Assembly (NCBI RefSeq): GCF_029255285.1
Contig: NZ_JAPUVI010000087.1
Location: forward strand, 62,001 to 126,000
Reading direction: 5' to 3'
Length of the DNA: 64,000 bases
Source: Accumulibacter sp.
GTDB taxonomy: Bacteria; Pseudomonadota; Gammaproteobacteria; Burkholderiales; Rhodocyclaceae
Both the position numbers and the translations under genes were made by a program. Every line of letters starts with the position of its first letter. Positions within the stretch are counted from its first letter, which is position 1. Below the pieces are notes generated by a model. The model was not told the DNA's origin. It did no database searches and worked only from the letters and a program-made list of their open reading frames with translations. Of this stretch, positions 50,152 to 57,898 are shown one piece after another.

Positions 50152-51336
50152 ATGTTGAGCCGCGGCCCGCACCCGGCCGCGTCGTTGCCCGCGCCGACAG
50201 CCGATGCGCTCGAACATAGCCAGGCGCTCAGCGGGCACATTGCGGCCCGGATCGCCGACGCTGACGGCTGGATCGGTTTTGATCGCTTCATGCAGCTCGC
50301 GCTCTATACGCCAGGCCTAGGCTATTACTCCGGCGGCGCGCGAAAATTCGGCGCGCCCGGCGACTTCGTCACGGCGCCGGAACTGGGCCCGCTTTTCGGT
50401 CAGACTATCGCGGCGCAAGTGGTGCAGCTTCTCGCTCTGGGCGCGCCCCATATCATCGAGGCGGGAGCCGGAAGCGGCCAACTCGCGGTCGACCTGCTGC
50501 GCGAACTCGAGCGGCGCGCTGTGCTTCCCGAGACCTACGGCATCCTCGAACTGTCGGGTGAACTGCGCGCGCGCCAGCAAGCCATCCTCGGCCGCGATGC
50601 GCCTCACCTGCTGTCGCGCGTGCACTGGCTCGATGCCTTGCCGGAACGCTTCGCCGGGTTGCTGCTGGCCAACGAGGTCCTCGATGCGATGCCGGCCCAT
50701 CTGGTGTGCTGGAACGAGGGAAGCATTGCCGAGCGCGGGGTCGGTCTCGACGGCGGGCGCTTCGTGTGGCTCGACCGCCCGGCAGGTGGCAGGCTTCTGG
50801 AACGTGCGCGCGAACTCGCCGCCGAATGCGCGATACCCCCCGGCTACCTGAGTGAAATCTCGCTCGTCGCACCGGCCTGGGTGACCGAGTGGGCAAGCGT
50901 GCTCGAACAGGGCGCGCTACTGCTGATCGACTACGGTTTCCCGCGCCACGAGTACTACCACCCGCAGCGCGATTCCGGAACGCTGATGTGCCATTACCGC
51001 CATCACGCCCATGGCGAGCCCTTCTTCCTGCCGGGATTGCAGGACATCACCGTACACGTGGATTTCACGGCGATCGCCGAAGCCGGCTGTGAGGCGGGTC
51101 TCGATCTGCTCGGCTACACCACGCAGGCGAACTTTCTTTTCAACTGTGGGTTGACGGAAGTGTTGGCACGTACCCCGATCAGCGACCCCGGGCGCTACCT
51201 GCCACTGGCCAACACCGCGCAGAAACTCGTCTCCCCGGCGGAAATGGGAGACATTTTCAAGGTCATCGCTTTCGGCAAAGGCATCAAGGAAGCGCCGCTC
51301 GGTTTCCTGGCCGGCGACCGCAGCGTGACACTATGA
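50152..51336 (+). CDS. MidA/NDUFAF7-family SAM-dependent methyltransferase
   Basis: The 394-aa protein has the MidA fold. IGFDRFMQLALYTPGLGYYS and KFGAPGDFVTAPELGPLFGQ form the N-terminal signature. The SAM motif is HIIEAGAGSGQLAVDLLREL; LLLANEVLDAMPAHL, LLIDYGFPRHEYYHPQR and LMCHYRHHAHGEPF are family hallmarks. The mitochondrial homologue methylates an arginine of complex I; the bacterial role is not settled. A neighbouring pteridine reductase and ttcA complete a frequent betaproteobacterial cluster. The CRISPR island begins directly after its stop. Confidence 0.9.
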   Translation: MLSRGPHPAASLPAPTADALEHSQALSGHIAARIADADGWIGFDRFMQLALYTPGLGYYSGGARKFGAPGDFVTAPELGPLFGQTIAAQVVQLLALGAPHIIEAGAGSGQLAVDLLRELERRAVLPETYGILELSGELRARQQAILGRDAPHLLSRVHWLDALPERFAGLLLANEVLDAMPAHLVCWNEGSIAERGVGLDGGRFVWLDRPAGGRLLERARELAAECAIPPGYLSEISLVAPAWVTEWASVLEQGALLLIDYGFPRHEYYHPQRDSGTLMCHYRHHAHGEPFFLPGLQDITVHVDFTAIAEAGCEAGLDLLGYTTQANFLFNCGLTEVLARTPISDPGRYLPLANTAQKLVSPAEMGDIFKVIAFGKGIKEAPLGFLAGDRSVTL

Positions 51337-51403
51337 GCAGTCGGTCGCGCGCCGGCTACGCGTAACTGCTGACGCAACGGCAGGTGGCCGTGGAGATGAT
51401 GCC

Positions 51404-51710
51404 ATGAACCTCCAGTACGAACGAATGCTCGCCTTGTGCGACAACCTGAGCCTGCCGTTCGGTGGCGCAGAACCACGTCGGCGCCGCGCAAAAGCGCCTA
51501 CAGCGACTTTCTCGAGGCGCTACGGAAAGCGGAAGTCGTAGGGCACCAAGTGCACAAGCCATACCTGCTGACGCGTCTGGCGGAATTCCCGACGATTCAA
51601 GACGCTGGAGGAATTCGATTACGCCTTCGCCGCCGGCTTCAAGAGGAGCCAGATCGACGAGCTGGCCAGCCTGTCTTTCCAGGGGATGGCCGCGCGAACG
51701 GGAAGGGCCG
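51404..51710 (+). pseudogene. IS21-family istB (transposition helper ATPase) remnant
   Basis: A start with ribosome-binding site (GGAGATGATGCC ATG) encodes MNLQYERMLALCDNLSLPF, the classic IstB N terminus. The homology then continues in two other frames: VAQNHVGAAQK-like and SAYSDFLEALRKAEVV through LLTRLAEFPTI, then KTLEEFDYAFAAGFKRSQ to IDELASLSF. At least three frames are needed, and the Walker A and everything after are missing, so it is dead. No istA and no IS21 ends are seen. It abuts the tracrRNA terminator and marks the left boundary of the CRISPR island. Confidence 0.82.
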
Positions 51711-51749
51711 CTTGGCGATGTTGGCAGAGATCCGCCAGCATCCCACGTG

Positions 51750-51779
51750 AAAAGGCCCGACAGGCAAGCCTCTCGGGCC
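51750..51779 (-). terminator. tracrRNA terminator hairpin
   Basis: On the minus strand GGCCCGA (51779-51773) pairs with TCGGGCC (51760-51754); an inner AGGC-TT-GCCT stem extends it, and TTTT follows. It forms the 3' stem-loop of the tracrRNA. Confidence 0.85.
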
Positions 51780-51848
51780 GGGTTCGGTCCATCGCCCGAA
51801 GGCGACAACCTTATTGTAGCAACGGCTCTTACCCCGGAAGACTACAAT
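51750..51848 (-). ncRNA. tracrRNA of the type II-C CRISPR system
   Basis: Read on the minus strand, the segment begins with a 36-nt anti-repeat (51848-51813) that pairs with the crRNA-sense repeat at 29 of 36 positions. It starts ATTGTAG and ends GCTACAAT, followed by AAGG. A hairpin TCGCC-TTCG-GGCGA follows, and then the terminal hairpin with T-run. Layout and length (about 100 nt) parallel the Neisseria meningitidis tracrRNA as I recall it (anti-repeat, AAGG, hairpins). A TACAAT -10 box lies six bases upstream of the predicted 5' end. It is divergent from cas9. Confidence 0.88.
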
Positions 51849-54800
51849 GTGGCCATTGTAGCCAGAAAGGAAGCGACGATACAAACGCGGAACTTGCCCT
51901 ACACGCTTGGCCTGGACATCGGAATGGCATCCATCGGCGCCGCCCTCCTGTTACCCGACCAACAACGAATTCTGGTACTCCACGTTCGCACCTTCGACAA
52001 AGCCGAAACAGCCAAGGAGGGCGAGTCCCTCAACAAGGTACGCCGCGATTCCCGGCTTACGCGTCGCCGCATCCGCCGCCGAGCGCATCGCCTGCTCCGT
52101 CTGGCCCGCCTGATGAAACGCGTTGGCTTGATCGCCGAAGCCAACCCGGCAGCCTTCTCCATACCGAGCGCCTCCCCCTGGCTATGGCGCGCCGAGGGCC
52201 TCGACCGGCGGCTGGAACCGAGGGAATGGGCAAGCGTGCTCTATCACCTGGTAAAGCATCGCGGTTTCCAGTCCAACCGGAAAGCCGACGGCAAGGCCGA
52301 CGAAAGGGTCGGACAGATGCTCTCCGGCGTGTGTCGCAACCAGGCATTGCTGAACGAGACGCGCTACCGCACGGTCGGTGAACTCGCCGCACGACATGAG
52401 TCGTTCAGCGACGCGAAACGGAACAAAGGCGGCAGCTACCGCCACACATTCGCCCGCTCGGATCTCGAAAGCGAGTTGAAGCTGCTGTTCGAGCACCAGA
52501 GGGCGTTCGGCAACGATCTCGCCGAAGCCAGCTTTCAACGACGCGTGCACGATCTGTTGATCGCCCGGCGCCCCACCCTCTCCGGCGACAACTTGCTCAA
52601 GATGGTTGGCAAGTGCACGTTCGACGCCAACGAATTCCGCGCCCCCAAAGCGGGCTACCGCGCCGAGCGCTTCGTCTGGCTGAGCAAGCTGAACAACCTC
52701 AAGATCGTCGGTGGAAGCGATGCGCGTCCGCTGACGGACAGCGAGCGCCGTGCCATCGTCGACCTGCCGTTTTCGCAGGCGAAGGTCACGTACAAGCAGG
52801 TCAGAGGGGCCCTTGGCCTGCTTGCCCATGAGCGCTTCAATCTGCTGTCCTATCGAGCCGATCCAACGGGTAAGGACAAGGACCCGGAAGAGGCGTCTTT
52901 CTTCGAGGCGAAGTTCTTCCACCGGCTACGCAAGGCCTACGAAGGCGCCGGGCTGAAGACGGAATGGCGGCGGGACGCACTCGATGCCGACAGGCTTGAT
53001 GATCTTGCCTACGCACTGACCTGCTACAAGGATGACGCCGAAAGCCGCCAGTGGCTGATGACCAAAGGCATCCAAGGCCCCATCGTCGAAGCCGTTCTCG
53101 TGGAGTCATTCGACAAGTTCATCCACCTCTCCACCAAAGCACTGAAGGCCATCCTGCCGTACATGGAAGCGGGACAGCGCTACGACGAGGCCGCCAACTC
53201 GGCCGGTTACCATCACAGTCAGCCTGATGCTGACGTCAGCCAGCAGAGCGCGCTGCCGCCGCCCAACCGACAGGCAATCGGCAACCCGGTGGTCCATCGA
53301 GCCCTCAACCAAGCACGAAAGATGGTCAACGCGATCGTCGTCGAATACGGCCCGCCAGCCGCGGTGCATATCGAGTTGGCGCGCGATTTGTCAAAGCCCC
53401 ATGAAGAGCGGCGAGAGATCGAGAAGGGGCAGAAGGAATTCCAGATCCTTAAGGAAAGGCTCACATCGGCGTTCGAGGAAACTTTTGGCCGCGCGCCGAG
53501 TGGGCAAGATCTGTTGAAGTACCGGCTCTTCCGCGAGCAACTCGACCAATGTCTCTATTGTCAGAAGGCTCTTGCCGTCGACCGCTTGTTCGAAATCGGC
53601 TACTCGCAGATTGACCACGCATTGCCCTACTCAAGAAGCTTCGACGACAGCATGAACAACAAGGTGGTCGTCCATGTCGCGTGCAATCAGGACAAGGGCA
53701 ATCGGACTCCCTACGAGTTCCTCGATGGCGCCACCGGCAGCGAGCGCTGGCAACGCTTCATCGCCTGGGTGCACACCAACAAGGCGATCCGCCAGGCCAA
53801 GCGCAACCGCCTGCTACGCGTTAACTTCGGGACCGACGAAGCGGGCGAATTCCGTGCCCGCAATCTCAACGACACGCGCTACATCTGCCGGGAGTTCAAG
53901 CGGACGATGGAAACCCATCTGCGGTGGCATCCGGATAGCTCTGCCGACCACCGTTGCGTCGTCGTTTCGGGGCAACTCACTTCATTATTGCGTGCTCGCT
54001 GGGGGCTAGTCAAAGTACGCGACGAAGGCGATCTGCATCACGCGATGGATGCGGCCGTGATCGCCGCCGCCAGCCGTGCGTTGGTCCAGAGAATGGCGAA
54101 CTATGCACGCCGCAAGGAGCTTGAAGCCGTACGCAAGCGTTACCTCGACCCCGAGACAGGCGAGATCATCGATATTGCTGCGGTGCGCCAGATGGAACTC
54201 GACTTCCCCAAGCCCTGGCCGCACTTTCGAGAAGAGTTGCTTGGACGACTGTCGCCGCAACCGAGACTTCAATTGTGCGGCGTGCCAGGCTACGACGACC
54301 AAACGCGCGCGGGAGTCCGCCCCATCCGCGTCTCGCGTGCCCCCACTCGGCTCGGCCTTGGGGCTGCGCACCAAGAAACGATCCGCTCCGTTCGAGGCAA
54401 CAGCCAGTCGGCAGTCAGGACCCTACTGCGTGACCTGAAAATGACGGACTTGCCGGATATCGTCGGATTCGGGCGGGACACAGCGCTCATCGACGCCATC
54501 CGCAACCGCCTCGAAGCGTTCGGAGGCGATGGCAGGAAGGCTTTCGACGACAAGCAAGCTCCGCTACGCAAGCCCTCGAGAGACCCGGCACGGGCGCCGG
54601 TGATCCGCAGCGTAAAACTGCTCGGCACCCAGAAGAGCGGAATTCCGATTCGCGGCGGCATCGCCGGTAATGGAGCGATGTTGCGGGCCGACATTTTCGC
54701 CAAGGGCGAACAGTTCCATGTTGTACCCGTGTATGTCGCCGATGCGGCAAGAGCGGAACTTCCGAACCGCGCCGTAGTGGCTTTCAAACCAGAAGACCAG

Positions 54801-55103
54801 TGGACCCTAATCGACGAAAGCTACAGCTTCCTGTTCAGCCTTTATCCAAACGACTGGCTAACCATTCGGTTGAGCAAGGAGGTGCGAGAAGGCTATTACG
54901 TTGGCCTTGATCGGTCGACCGGAGGGATCGATCTGTGGCTCCACGATCGAAACCAGACTCAAGGCCGGAAAGGGATGCTCAGAGGCAACGGTATCAAGAC
55001 GGCCCGCGCTGTCGAAAAATACCATGTCGACCTTCTCGGCAATCTGTACCGAGTGCACAAGGAAGATCGCCAGCCAGTCAACGCTCCGCGGACCAGGGGG
55101 TAA
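51849..55103 (+). CDS. cas9: CRISPR-associated endonuclease Cas9, type II-C
   Basis: From GTG 51849 the product is 1084 aa, close to the 1082-aa Neisseria Cas9. Regions in order: RuvC-I YTLGLDIGMASIG (Asp about 23), the Arg-rich bridge helix RLTRRRIRRRAHRLLRLARL, a compact REC lobe, RuvC-II VHIELARDLS (Glu about 509), HNH YSQIDHALPYSRSFDDSMNN (Asp 589, His 590), RuvC-III DLHHAMDAAVIAA (His 730/731, Asp 734), and a C-terminal PAM-interacting domain. All nuclease residues are present. The start is uncertain. No ATG exists near the N terminus. GTG 51849 has GGAAG eight bases upstream; TTG 51894 would also start at a family-typical place. cas1 follows after three bases. Confidence 0.95.
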   Translation: MAIVARKEATIQTRNLPYTLGLDIGMASIGAALLLPDQQRILVLHVRTFDKAETAKEGESLNKVRRDSRLTRRRIRRRAHRLLRLARLMKRVGLIAEANPAAFSIPSASPWLWRAEGLDRRLEPREWASVLYHLVKHRGFQSNRKADGKADERVGQMLSGVCRNQALLNETRYRTVGELAARHESFSDAKRNKGGSYRHTFARSDLESELKLLFEHQRAFGNDLAEASFQRRVHDLLIARRPTLSGDNLLKMVGKCTFDANEFRAPKAGYRAERFVWLSKLNNLKIVGGSDARPLTDSERRAIVDLPFSQAKVTYKQVRGALGLLAHERFNLLSYRADPTGKDKDPEEASFFEAKFFHRLRKAYEGAGLKTEWRRDALDADRLDDLAYALTCYKDDAESRQWLMTKGIQGPIVEAVLVESFDKFIHLSTKALKAILPYMEAGQRYDEAANSAGYHHSQPDADVSQQSALPPPNRQAIGNPVVHRALNQARKMVNAIVVEYGPPAAVHIELARDLSKPHEERREIEKGQKEFQILKERLTSAFEETFGRAPSGQDLLKYRLFREQLDQCLYCQKALAVDRLFEIGYSQIDHALPYSRSFDDSMNNKVVVHVACNQDKGNRTPYEFLDGATGSERWQRFIAWVHTNKAIRQAKRNRLLRVNFGTDEAGEFRARNLNDTRYICREFKRTMETHLRWHPDSSADHRCVVVSGQLTSLLRARWGLVKVRDEGDLHHAMDAAVIAAASRALVQRMANYARRKELEAVRKRYLDPETGEIIDIAAVRQMELDFPKPWPHFREELLGRLSPQPRLQLCGVPGYDDQTRAGVRPIRVSRAPTRLGLGAAHQETIRSVRGNSQSAVRTLLRDLKMTDLPDIVGFGRDTALIDAIRNRLEAFGGDGRKAFDDKQAPLRKPSRDPARAPVIRSVKLLGTQKSGIPIRGGIAGNGAMLRADIFAKGEQFHVVPVYVADAARAELPNRAVVAFKPEDQWTLIDESYSFLFSLYPNDWLTIRLSKEVREGYYVGLDRSTGGIDLWLHDRNQTQGRKGMLRGNGIKTARAVEKYHVDLLGNLYRVHKEDRQPVNAPRTRG
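51855..51884 (-). promoter_or_regulatory. tracrRNA promoter
   Basis: On the minus strand TACAAT (51860-51855) and a weak TTGTAT (51884-51879) are separated by 18 bases. Transcription would begin at or near 51848, the first base of the anti-repeat. The box lies inside the start region of cas9 on the other strand. Confidence 0.55.
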
Positions 55104-55106
55104 GCC

Positions 55107-56075
55107 ATGGGCTGGCGCAGCGTGCTCATCGCCAGCCCGGCAGCACTTACGCTGGAAGACCGCGCGCTTGCCATCGCGCAAGGCGGTAAGGCCGCGCGAG
55201 TAATGCTGGAGGACATCAGCGTGGTGGTGCTCGACCACGCACAGATCAGTCTCACCGCACCGTTGCTCGCCGCCTGCGCGGAAGCGCGGATTGCGGTACT
55301 CACCGTCAACACGTCGCATCTTCCAAACGGCGTGCTGATCCCCTACCTGTCACACAGTCGGGCGCTCAAAGTGATGACGGCACAACTGGAAATGAGCCGT
55401 CCGGAGAAGAAACGTCTGTGGCAGCGCGTTGTGCGCTACAAGATTGCGAACCAAGCCGCCGTTCTGGAGCGTGCCTCGACCGCCGACGCCGACCCCGACG
55501 CGCGGCATCTGAGGCACCTCGCCCGCAGTGTGCGCTCGGGCGACCCGGACAACTACGAAGCCCAGGCCGCCCAAGTCTACTTTCGCCGCCTTTTCAACGT
55601 CCAGTTCAATCGAAGCCAGAAGCGCTTCCATAACGCCGCGCTGAACTACGGATATGCGGTGGTGCGCGCCGCCATTGCCCGCACGCTAGCCGCCCACGGA
55701 TTCCTGCCCGCCTTCGGACTGTTCCACCATAGCGAACAGAACGCCTTCAATCTTGCTGACGATCTGATGGAACCTTACCGGCCGCTGGTGGATGCGGGCA
55801 TTCTCGCCCACTATCCCGAGGAGCCCGATCGCGATCTCGCGCCTGCCGACAAGGGCCGCCTCGTGGCGCTGCTGCACAAGGACGTAACGCTCTCCAGCCA
55901 TACAACGGACCTCGGTCGTGGTGGTTCTTGCACATTGCTCGCGGCAATCGATGCGACCGTTTCCGGTCTATCCGCGATAGCGCTTCAGGGAGCGCCACAT
56001 GAGCGTCTGGCGCTTCCGCAACTGGACGCCGCATGGTTGAGTGTGATCACCGACCGCGCTGACCAGCGCACATGA
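55107..56075 (+). CDS. cas1: CRISPR integrase Cas1 (type II-C)
   Basis: The 322-aa protein begins WRSVLIASPAALTLEDRALA, typical of type II Cas1. Metal-binding residues are Glu about 151 in PDNYEAQAAQVYFRRLF, His 207/208 in FGLFHHSEQNAFNLADDL, and the acidic DDLMEPYRPLVD (about 219-229). With Cas2 it integrates new spacers. It starts three bases after cas9, and its stop overlaps the cas2 ATG (ATGA 56072-56075). It appears complete, so adaptation should be possible. Confidence 0.95.
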   Translation: MGWRSVLIASPAALTLEDRALAIAQGGKAARVMLEDISVVVLDHAQISLTAPLLAACAEARIAVLTVNTSHLPNGVLIPYLSHSRALKVMTAQLEMSRPEKKRLWQRVVRYKIANQAAVLERASTADADPDARHLRHLARSVRSGDPDNYEAQAAQVYFRRLFNVQFNRSQKRFHNAALNYGYAVVRAAIARTLAAHGFLPAFGLFHHSEQNAFNLADDLMEPYRPLVDAGILAHYPEEPDRDLAPADKGRLVALLHKDVTLSSHTTDLGRGGSCTLLAAIDATVSGLSAIALQGAPHERLALPQLDAAWLSVITDRADQRT

Positions 56076-56635: not shown

Positions 56636-56711
56636 CAGGGGTATCGAAGACTGACGTGGTCTAATTTCCCTGGACACCTCGATAGGTGGATGATCCACCT
56701 TTGGAGGAGCA

Positions 56712-57898
<1,187 letters not shown>

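What the first reader, a model, noticed from the sequence alone, without database searches (positions are those of the whole stretch)
51813..51884. Bidirectional repeat-like element joins the tracrRNA and the cas9 5' end
Seen: the 36-bp element at 51813-51848 is the tracrRNA anti-repeat on the minus strand and, on the plus strand, a degenerate crRNA-sense repeat (29/36 identical) directly abutting the cas9 start region. TACAAT occurs on the plus strand at 51843-51848 and on the minus strand at 51860-51855. Inference: a cas9 mRNA carrying this leader would be a crRNA mimic able to pair with tracrRNA, and each strand's -10 box lies in the other's initial transcribed region. This suggests mutual control of Cas9 and tracrRNA by RNA pairing, promoter interference or self-targeting by Cas9.
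Basis: partly seen in the sequence, partly recalled or inferred. Interest (0 to 1): 0.8.

Follow-up and report, generated by a model that had tools for sequence, protein, structure and literature searches.

The report
tracrRNA promoter nested in cas9 start
In this type II-C CRISPR locus and many of its relatives, the promoter of the guide-RNA partner tracrRNA lies on top of the very start of the cas9 gene on the opposite strand, so the two may compete, but the crRNA-like sequence seen on the cas9 strand looks like the unavoidable complement of tracrRNA rather than a designed decoy.

Summary
In detail: 51813-51848 matches the array repeat at 29/36 (next best non-array place 22/36), and TACAAT sits at 51843-51848 (+) and 51860-51855 (-). 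But the "degenerate crRNA-sense repeat" is simply the complement of the tracrRNA anti-repeat. In 61 loci with arrays, differences between anti-repeat and own repeat, outside an internal loop and the last three bases, mostly keep a G-U pair with crRNA; plus-strand TAnnnT ends 61 of 61 repeats but 11 of 61 anti-repeats (the window's included). What is widely conserved is the tracrRNA promoter: its -10 lies between anti-repeat and cas9 RBS, its -35 in or beside the first cas9 codons (59 of 76 loci; 0-7 of 76 at shifted offsets; 6 of 7 hold-out loci). Overlapping initiation of cas9 and tracrRNA is thus supported as geometry; any regulatory effect is untested. In the window TACAAT predicts a cas9 start near 51855, downstream of the element, so a crRNA-mimic leader is not supported here, though 47 of 80 loci lack such a signal and may have one. 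Self-targeting has no support. The window copy looks partly decayed: its expected ATG is ATA and two tracrRNA pairings are broken.

The parts
51750..51848 (-). tracrRNA gene (predicted 5' end at or near 51848; terminator-like hairpin 51754-51779, T run of four 51753-51750)
   Evidence: Conserved sequence and covariation in 40 aligned loci; nothing visibly conserved upstream of the hairpin (by eye). The consensus terminator scan did not flag it
51813..51848 (-). anti-repeat of tracrRNA; its complement on + is the 'degenerate crRNA-sense repeat'
   Evidence: 29/36 to repeat; pairing-preserving differences in 61 loci
51855..51860 (-). tracrRNA -10 (TACAAT on minus)
   Evidence: Minus-strand promoter score peaks at this offset, above 6 in 92% of 76 loci
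51879..51884 (-). tracrRNA -35 (TTGTAT on minus, 3 of 6 to consensus, spacer 18), coincides with the expected cas9 start codon
   Evidence: CAA (TTG on minus) at spacer 16-18 in 59 of 76 loci vs 0-7 of 76 at 24 shifted offsets
51843..51848 (+). candidate cas9 -10 (TACAAT) inside the anti-repeat; predicted cas9 mRNA start about 51855
   Evidence: Position confirmed; TAnnnT kept in 11 of 61 anti-repeats; present in the window's nearest Cas9 relatives L006, L025, L026, L027
51867..51873 (+). Shine-Dalgarno-like AAGGAAG of cas9
   Evidence: Sequence; AAGGAA scores 5 of 6
51879..55103 (+). cas9 (type II); expected start codon reads ATA here instead of ATG
   Evidence: TIGR01865 716.8 bits; best PDB match 6jdq, E=7.9e-234; ATG in nine relatives, ATA in window
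55107..56075 (+). cas1 (type II)
   Evidence: TIGR03639 284.3 bits
56072..56404 (+). cas2
   Evidence: TIGR01573 82.2 bits
56468..56635 (-). CRISPR array: 3 repeats, 2 spacers, crRNA sense on minus

Best explanation
The interval is the shared 5' end of two divergent genes: tracrRNA (minus) and cas9 (plus). The tracrRNA promoter is nested in the cas9 start: its -10 (51860-51855) sits between the anti-repeat and the cas9 ribosome-binding site, its -35 (51884-51879) on the cas9 start codon; tracrRNA begins at the anti-repeat's 5' end. The repeat-like plus strand is the complement of the anti-repeat and is shaped by pairing of tracrRNA with crRNA. In the window's own sub-group the anti-repeat still carries, on the plus strand, the TACAAT found at the end of the repeats, and this most likely starts cas9 mRNA about 7 nt from the tracrRNA start, so RNA polymerase can sit on only one of the two promoters at a time. 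Shown: anatomy, conservation of the promoter geometry, pairing-type differences, no visible conservation upstream of the tracrRNA hairpin. Inferred: both start sites, mutual exclusion, and any regulatory benefit (for example holding Cas9 down when tracrRNA is strongly transcribed).
For: 98 loci were scripted (window included); 94 were kept with an anti-repeat on the opposite strand upstream of cas9, 80 after near-copies, and in 76 of the 80 the cas9 start lies within 90 nt of the anti-repeat's first base, most often 61-66. Minus-strand promoter score peaks at +41 (above 6 in 92% of 76). -35 core CAA at spacer 16-18 in 59 of 76 when the -10 is chosen without looking at the -35, against 0-7 of 76 at 24 shifted offsets; it lies after the start codon in 44 of 76 (window not counted as inside), in both deep Cas9 clades (10 of 13, 49 of 63), and in two codon registers: codon 2 is CAA in 11 of 12 loci with the start at +65 to +67, and it spans codons 3/4 in 36 of 46 loci with the start at +59 to +64, where codon 3 of the 36 is D, G, S, N or V; codon 3 ends in C in 37 of the 46, against 38% of codons 7-60 (window not in these counts). 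Hold-out: 6 of 7 new non-duplicate compact loci. Pairing, anti-repeat against own repeat in 61 loci: positions 1-8, 82 G-U-keeping and 0 broken cells; 14-25, 0 and 2; 26 to fourth-last, 41 and 13; last three, 31 and 43; positions 9-13 (internal loop) 0 and 241. When one direction of an E. coli bidirectional promoter is strongly activated the other can be repressed by polymerase competition alone (PMC12825309, abstract).
Against: No transcript data: no start site is mapped in any compact locus. A consensus scan finds no promoter with both hexamers, and no terminator, in 51300-52200; the window's -35 is weak (3 of 6). TACAAT as cas9 -10 has no counterpart in 50 of 61 anti-repeats, so it cannot be the general cas9 promoter. 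17 of 76 loci lack CAA at the expected spacing, and in the hold-out the -10s of L104, L107 and L108 score low (2.9-3.6). At basal strength none of five tested E. coli bidirectional promoters showed polymerase competition (PMC12825309, abstract), so overlap need not mean interference. Loci are related, so counts are not independent events. In one search the length of each repeat (36 or 37) was chosen so that it ended in TAnnnT when it could (48 at 36, 13 at 37), which favours the repeats; anti-repeats stay at 11 of 61 when either register is allowed.
Confidence: 0.65

Rival explanations
1. [quoted passage not shown]
For: In 47 of 80 loci there is no plus-strand TAnnnT either at the end of the anti-repeat or over the tracrRNA -10, yet 31 of 45 short-leader members of that class keep a Shine-Dalgarno match of 5 or 6 of 6 just after the tracrRNA -10, so their mRNA should start upstream and would contain anti-repeat complement. 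Cellular RNAs that pair with tracrRNA can act as noncanonical crRNAs of C. jejuni Cas9 in cell-free tests (PMC8224270, passages read).
Against: For the window, TACAAT and the alternative CATTGT both place the start downstream of 51848. The only recurrent plus-strand TAnnnT further up in that class, at the anti-repeat start, is absent in 15 of 47, so it is not maintained as a promoter. The element is complementary to its own tracrRNA by geometry, so pairing potential is no evidence of selection.
Confidence: 0.2
2. Bidirectional promoter: one near-symmetric -10 fires both ways, giving tracrRNA leftward and cas9 rightward from the same element (start sites about 18 bp apart; in the window cas9 would start near 51866).
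For: 13 of 14 loci with a longer cas9 leader (start at or beyond +74) have plus-strand TAnnnT overlapping the tracrRNA -10, against 10 of 62 with a short leader. Bidirectional promoters with start sites most often 18 bp apart are described in E. coli and Salmonella (PMC12825309 and PMC10268837, passages read).
Against: The long-leader loci fall mostly in one clade, so few independent events. In short-leader loci such a start would cut into the Shine-Dalgarno. In the window the plus hexamer CATTGT lacks the first T.
Confidence: 0.3
3. Mere compaction: the two 5' ends overlap because the mobile module is short; there is no regulatory coupling, and cas9 is transcribed at a low level, perhaps from outside.
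For: Nothing upstream of the tracrRNA hairpin looks conserved (by eye).
Against: The longest open frame upstream lies on the cas9 strand in 41 and on the other in 31 of 72 loci that could be scored by a rough rule (8 of 80 not scored), so an outside co-directional gene is not general; overlap is found in both deep Cas9 clades.
Confidence: 0.4
4. Decay: in this particular genome the locus is losing function, so whatever coupling relatives have no longer matters here.
For: Expected ATG is ATA; anti-repeat position 18 is T in the window and C in the other 95 of the 96 loci scored, breaking a core pair with its crRNA; a G-G mismatch in the last hairpin is seen in 1 of 40 loci, the window; 3-repeat array; its end branch in the Cas9 tree is 0.30 against 0.16 for its sister L006.
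Against: cas9 is open over 1,084 codons from 51849 with no stop, and RuvC and HNH motifs align with 6jdq in the part of the alignment shown; cas1 and cas2 pass their model cut-offs. L122, outside the 96, also reads T at position 18 (its repeat was not compared). ATA can start translation weakly (recalled).
Confidence: 0.4
5. tracr-L-like autoregulation or self-targeting: Cas9 with a guide from this region binds or cuts the locus.
For: tracr-L of S. [quoted passage not shown]
Against: A guide made from the plus transcript would face ATTGTAGC, nearly the array's own GTTGTAGC; window spacers have no match above 20 of 30 elsewhere in the window. tracr-L is described for some II-A systems and as not found in other subtypes (PMC8616872).
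Confidence: 0.03

Closest known systems
Neisseria-type II-C locus (tracrRNA divergent from cas9)
   Different: In those loci cas9 starts at +142 to +156 with room for its own promoter; here and in 76 of 80 non-redundant loci it starts within 90 nt, on top of the tracrRNA promoter
Bacterial bidirectional promoters (Warman, Grainger and colleagues)
   Same: Divergent starts sharing or overlapping -10 elements; [quoted passage not shown]
   Different: Here one transcript is a guide RNA and the other the enzyme it serves; the window's two -10s are separate elements 6 bp apart rather than one symmetric element
Streptococcus pyogenes tracr-L autoregulation of Pcas
   Same: tracrRNA locus controls cas expression in cis (as hypothesised here)
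   Different: Mechanism there is a guide-directed Cas9 repressor; no extended guide was seen here
Francisella and Neisseria scaRNA
   Different: scaRNA is a separate transcript unit; the only non-array match to the repeat pattern in this genome is the anti-repeat itself (up to 3 mismatches)

Membership tests
Type II-C CRISPR-Cas | cas9, cas1 and cas2 without csn2 or cas4, with array and tracrRNA | tested here: met
   cas9-cas1-cas2-array contiguous; the gene upstream (50152-51336) hits no NCBIfam model; genes beyond the array were not scanned
Type II-C CRISPR-Cas | Cas9 of the Neisseria group with RuvC and HNH motifs | tested here: met
   Alignment to 6jdq over residues 12-1077, shown up to about residue 950
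tracrRNA gene | Anti-repeat, conserved hairpins, covariation | tested here: met
   17 of 24 pairs with two-sided changes in 40 loci
tracrRNA gene | Intrinsic terminator and mapped transcript | tested here: inconclusive
   Terminal GC hairpin followed by TTTT, not flagged by the consensus scan; no transcript data
scaRNA | Separate degenerate repeat outside the array with its own promoter and terminator | tested here: inconclusive
   Only the anti-repeat and three array repeats match in the genome with up to 3 mismatches; a more degenerate copy would be missed
tracr-L / natural single-guide RNA | 5'-extended tracrRNA with a guide matching the cas promoter next to a PAM | tested here: inconclusive
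   No repeat-like segment seen beyond the anti-repeat apart from the short CTACAATG/CATTGTAG inverted repeat (by eye); PAM of this Cas9 unknown
Bidirectional promoter | Divergent start sites 7-25 bp apart mapped in vivo | not testable with these tools
   Sequence symmetry tabulated, no transcript data
crRNA-mimic cas9 leader | cas9 mRNA 5' end upstream of the element | not testable with these tools
   Promoter-like hexamers in the window predict a start downstream

The most novel reading that the evidence does not exclude
In a large clade of compact II-C systems the tracrRNA promoter has been built into the cas9 ribosome-binding site and first codons, constraining Cas9's N-terminus, and because in many members no cas9 promoter fits between, cas9 mRNA there carries a leader antisense to tracrRNA: guide RNA and nuclease would be set against each other both by polymerase occupancy and by RNase III-cut duplexes, a built-in limiter of Cas9 level.
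Probability: 0.3. Interest if true: 0.7.

Novelty: new variant of a known kind. Interest (0 to 1): 0.5.

Why it matters
In my judgement how type II-C systems keep Cas9 in check is little known; a conserved overlap of the tracrRNA promoter with the cas9 start gives a directly testable circuit that needs no extra regulator, and it warns that recoding the first cas9 codons or moving the start in such loci could disturb tracrRNA. It also shows why an anti-repeat's complement should not be read as a crRNA mimic without controls.

Tried and rejected
Tried: (1) consensus scan of 51300-52200: no two-hexamer promoter and no terminator found. (2) A general plus-strand cas9 promoter: the position-averaged score has no peak like the minus one; the best, at the anti-repeat start, exceeds 6 in 30% of 76 loci and is not kept in the class that would need it. 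(3) A promoter upstream of the tracrRNA hairpin: nothing conserved there, judged by eye on 80 loci printed side by side. (4) My first -35 test (64 of 76) chose the -10 with a score that already included the -35; repeated with a -10-only choice it gives 59 of 76, which is the figure I use. The class labels and the long/short table still use the combined score. (5) A first attempt to extract repeats failed through a faulty pattern; redone. (6) Four loci were dropped: L019 (anti-repeat score 21), L021 and L022 (Cas9 fragments), L061 (contig ends before the anti-repeat); 14 more were near-copies. For the repeat comparison 61 of 80 loci had at least two identical repeat copies; 67 had any. The tree used 76 of 80 proteins (quick method). 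L038 is outside the 76 compact loci because my motif search missed its frame; L018, L034 and L035 have distant starts. (7) Hold-out: of 28 new loci (L104-L131), 7 are compact and new, 3 are near-copies (L105, L106, L119), 4 are Neisseria-like with distant starts (L122, L123, L124, L128), and 14 showed no anti-repeat at cas9 (cut contigs or more distant Cas9).

Considered and rejected: scaRNA, tracr-L, self-targeting (see rivals).

Papers: no overlap of tracrRNA promoter and cas9 start appeared in the listings of searches of an open-licence library; only listings were seen except for the papers whose passages are cited. Zhang 2013, Faure 2019, Chylinski 2013 and Workman 2021 were not read (the DOIs that I recalled for Chylinski and Faure are not held), so absence from print is not shown.

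Mended on re-checking: the loss count at the anti-repeat start is 15 of 47, not 16; the abstract of PMC12825309 reports no competition at basal strength, which I had left out, so I lowered the best explanation from 0.70 to 0.65 and raised mere compaction from 0.35 to 0.40; scaRNA membership is inconclusive, not failed.

Full report
What is there. The window holds a type II-C locus: tracrRNA on the minus strand, then cas9, cas1, cas2 on plus and a three-repeat array read on minus. Cas9 matches 6jdq (N. meningitidis Cas9, recalled) over residues 12-1077. The element at 51813-51848 matches the repeat at 29 of 36 positions; the next best non-array place scores 22, and in the whole genome only it and the three repeats fit the repeat pattern with up to 3 mismatches. 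The minus strand folds better than 200 shuffles (z -3.4).

Relatives. I fetched relatives by Cas9: 18 of 200 genomes matched (own genome included) and one search kept 80 of 139 confirmed loci. Of 98 loci scripted (window included), 94 were kept with the anti-repeat upstream of cas9 on the opposite strand; 80 remain after removing near-copies. In 76 of 80 the cas9 start lies within 90 nt of the anti-repeat's first base, most often 61-66, that is about 25-30 nt after its end. To the eye the conserved module ends at the tracrRNA hairpin, and the longest open frame further up points either way (41 same strand, 31 opposite, 8 not scored).

What shapes the element. For 61 loci with at least two identical repeat copies I compared anti-repeat and own repeat. 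At positions 1-8 there are 82 differences that keep a G-U pair and none that breaks pairing (61 of the 82 are the same change at position 1, probably one old event). Positions 9-13 are unpaired in most cells (241 of 305), an internal loop. At 14-25 there are two broken cells, one of them the window's. From 26 to the fourth-last base 41 cells keep G-U and 13 are broken; at the last three, 31 and 43. Array repeats end in TAnnnT in 61 of 61 (their length, 36 or 37, was chosen with that in mind); anti-repeats carry it on the plus strand in 11 of 61 in either register. So the strand under selection is the tracrRNA, pairing with crRNA; the plus-strand -10 is kept only in some groups, including the window's nearest Cas9 relatives L006, L025, L026 and L027.

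The conserved part: a nested promoter. On the minus strand a sigma-70-like promoter scores above 6 at the same offset in 92% of 76 loci. Choosing the -10 without regard to the -35, CAA (TTG on minus) stands at spacer 16-18 in 59 of 76 loci, against 0-7 of 76 at 24 shifted offsets; it lies after the cas9 start codon in 44 of 76 and appears in both deep Cas9 clades, 10 of 13 and 49 of 63. It is codon 2 where the start is at +65 to +67 (11 of 12) and spans codons 3/4 where the start is at +59 to +64 (36 of 46), with codon 3 variable in amino acid but ending in C in 37 of 46. A constraint that keeps its distance from the tracrRNA -10 while the reading frame moves looks like a constraint of the promoter, not of the protein. 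Seven new non-duplicate compact loci served as hold-out: 6 of 7 have the CAA, though three of the -10s are weak (the L108 start was checked). Neisseria-like loci keep the tracrRNA promoter but a distant cas9 start.

Where cas9 starts. Classes (80 loci): A, plus TAnnnT in the anti-repeat (7); B, plus TAnnnT overlapping the tracrRNA -10 (18); both (5); C, neither (47); 3 distant. Long cas9 leaders go with B (13 of 14, against 10 of 62), though mostly in one clade. The window is class A: predicted start about 51855, leader with AAGGAAG at 51867-51873. Class C has no fitting signal; with a good Shine-Dalgarno in 31 of 45 short-leader members, its mRNA should start upstream, within or behind the anti-repeat.

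Would overlap regulate? In E. coli, five tested bidirectional promoters showed no competition at basal strength, but strong activation of one direction could repress the other (PMC12825309, abstract). So the overlap matters only if one of the two promoters is strong, which is unknown here.

State of this copy. The window has ATA where nine loci of the same layout have ATG, T at anti-repeat position 18 where the other 95 of 96 scored have C (L122, not among the 96, has T too), and a G-G mismatch in the last hairpin unique among 40. Its Cas9 branch is longer than its sister's. The frame is nevertheless open. I read this as recent weakening, not proven loss.

Known and unknown. A tracrRNA divergent from cas9 in II-C is known (PMC3936727 and PMC6199352, passages read). 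Bidirectional promoters are known. Pairing of host RNAs with tracrRNA is known. I found no description of the nested promoter in the listings of eight searches of an open library, which does not prove it unreported.

Noticed in passing
window 51879-51881: cas9 start codon is ATA where relatives have ATG; translation may start weakly there or at another codon.
   Followed up: partly
window 51830 and 51772: Two tracrRNA positions differ from nearly all relatives (core crRNA pair; last hairpin), hinting at decay of this copy.
   Followed up: partly
window 56660-57300: Insertion-sequence-like transposase reading, apparently frame-broken, directly beside the very short array (by eye, no family search).
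   Followed up: no
window 51356-51750: Stretch between the upstream gene and the tracrRNA hairpin that looks like broken coding remnants (by eye).
   Followed up: no
L021 and L022: Genomes with an anti-repeat and a tracrRNA -10-like site but only an N-terminal Cas9 match (residues 16-252).
   Followed up: no
L019, L122, L123, L124, L128: Relatives with a cas9 start at +142 to +156, i.e. room for a separate cas9 promoter, where compaction did not happen.
   Followed up: partly
L037: Contig titled Alistipes senegalensis carries a locus of this mostly proteobacterial II-C clade; possible transfer or binning error.
   Followed up: no
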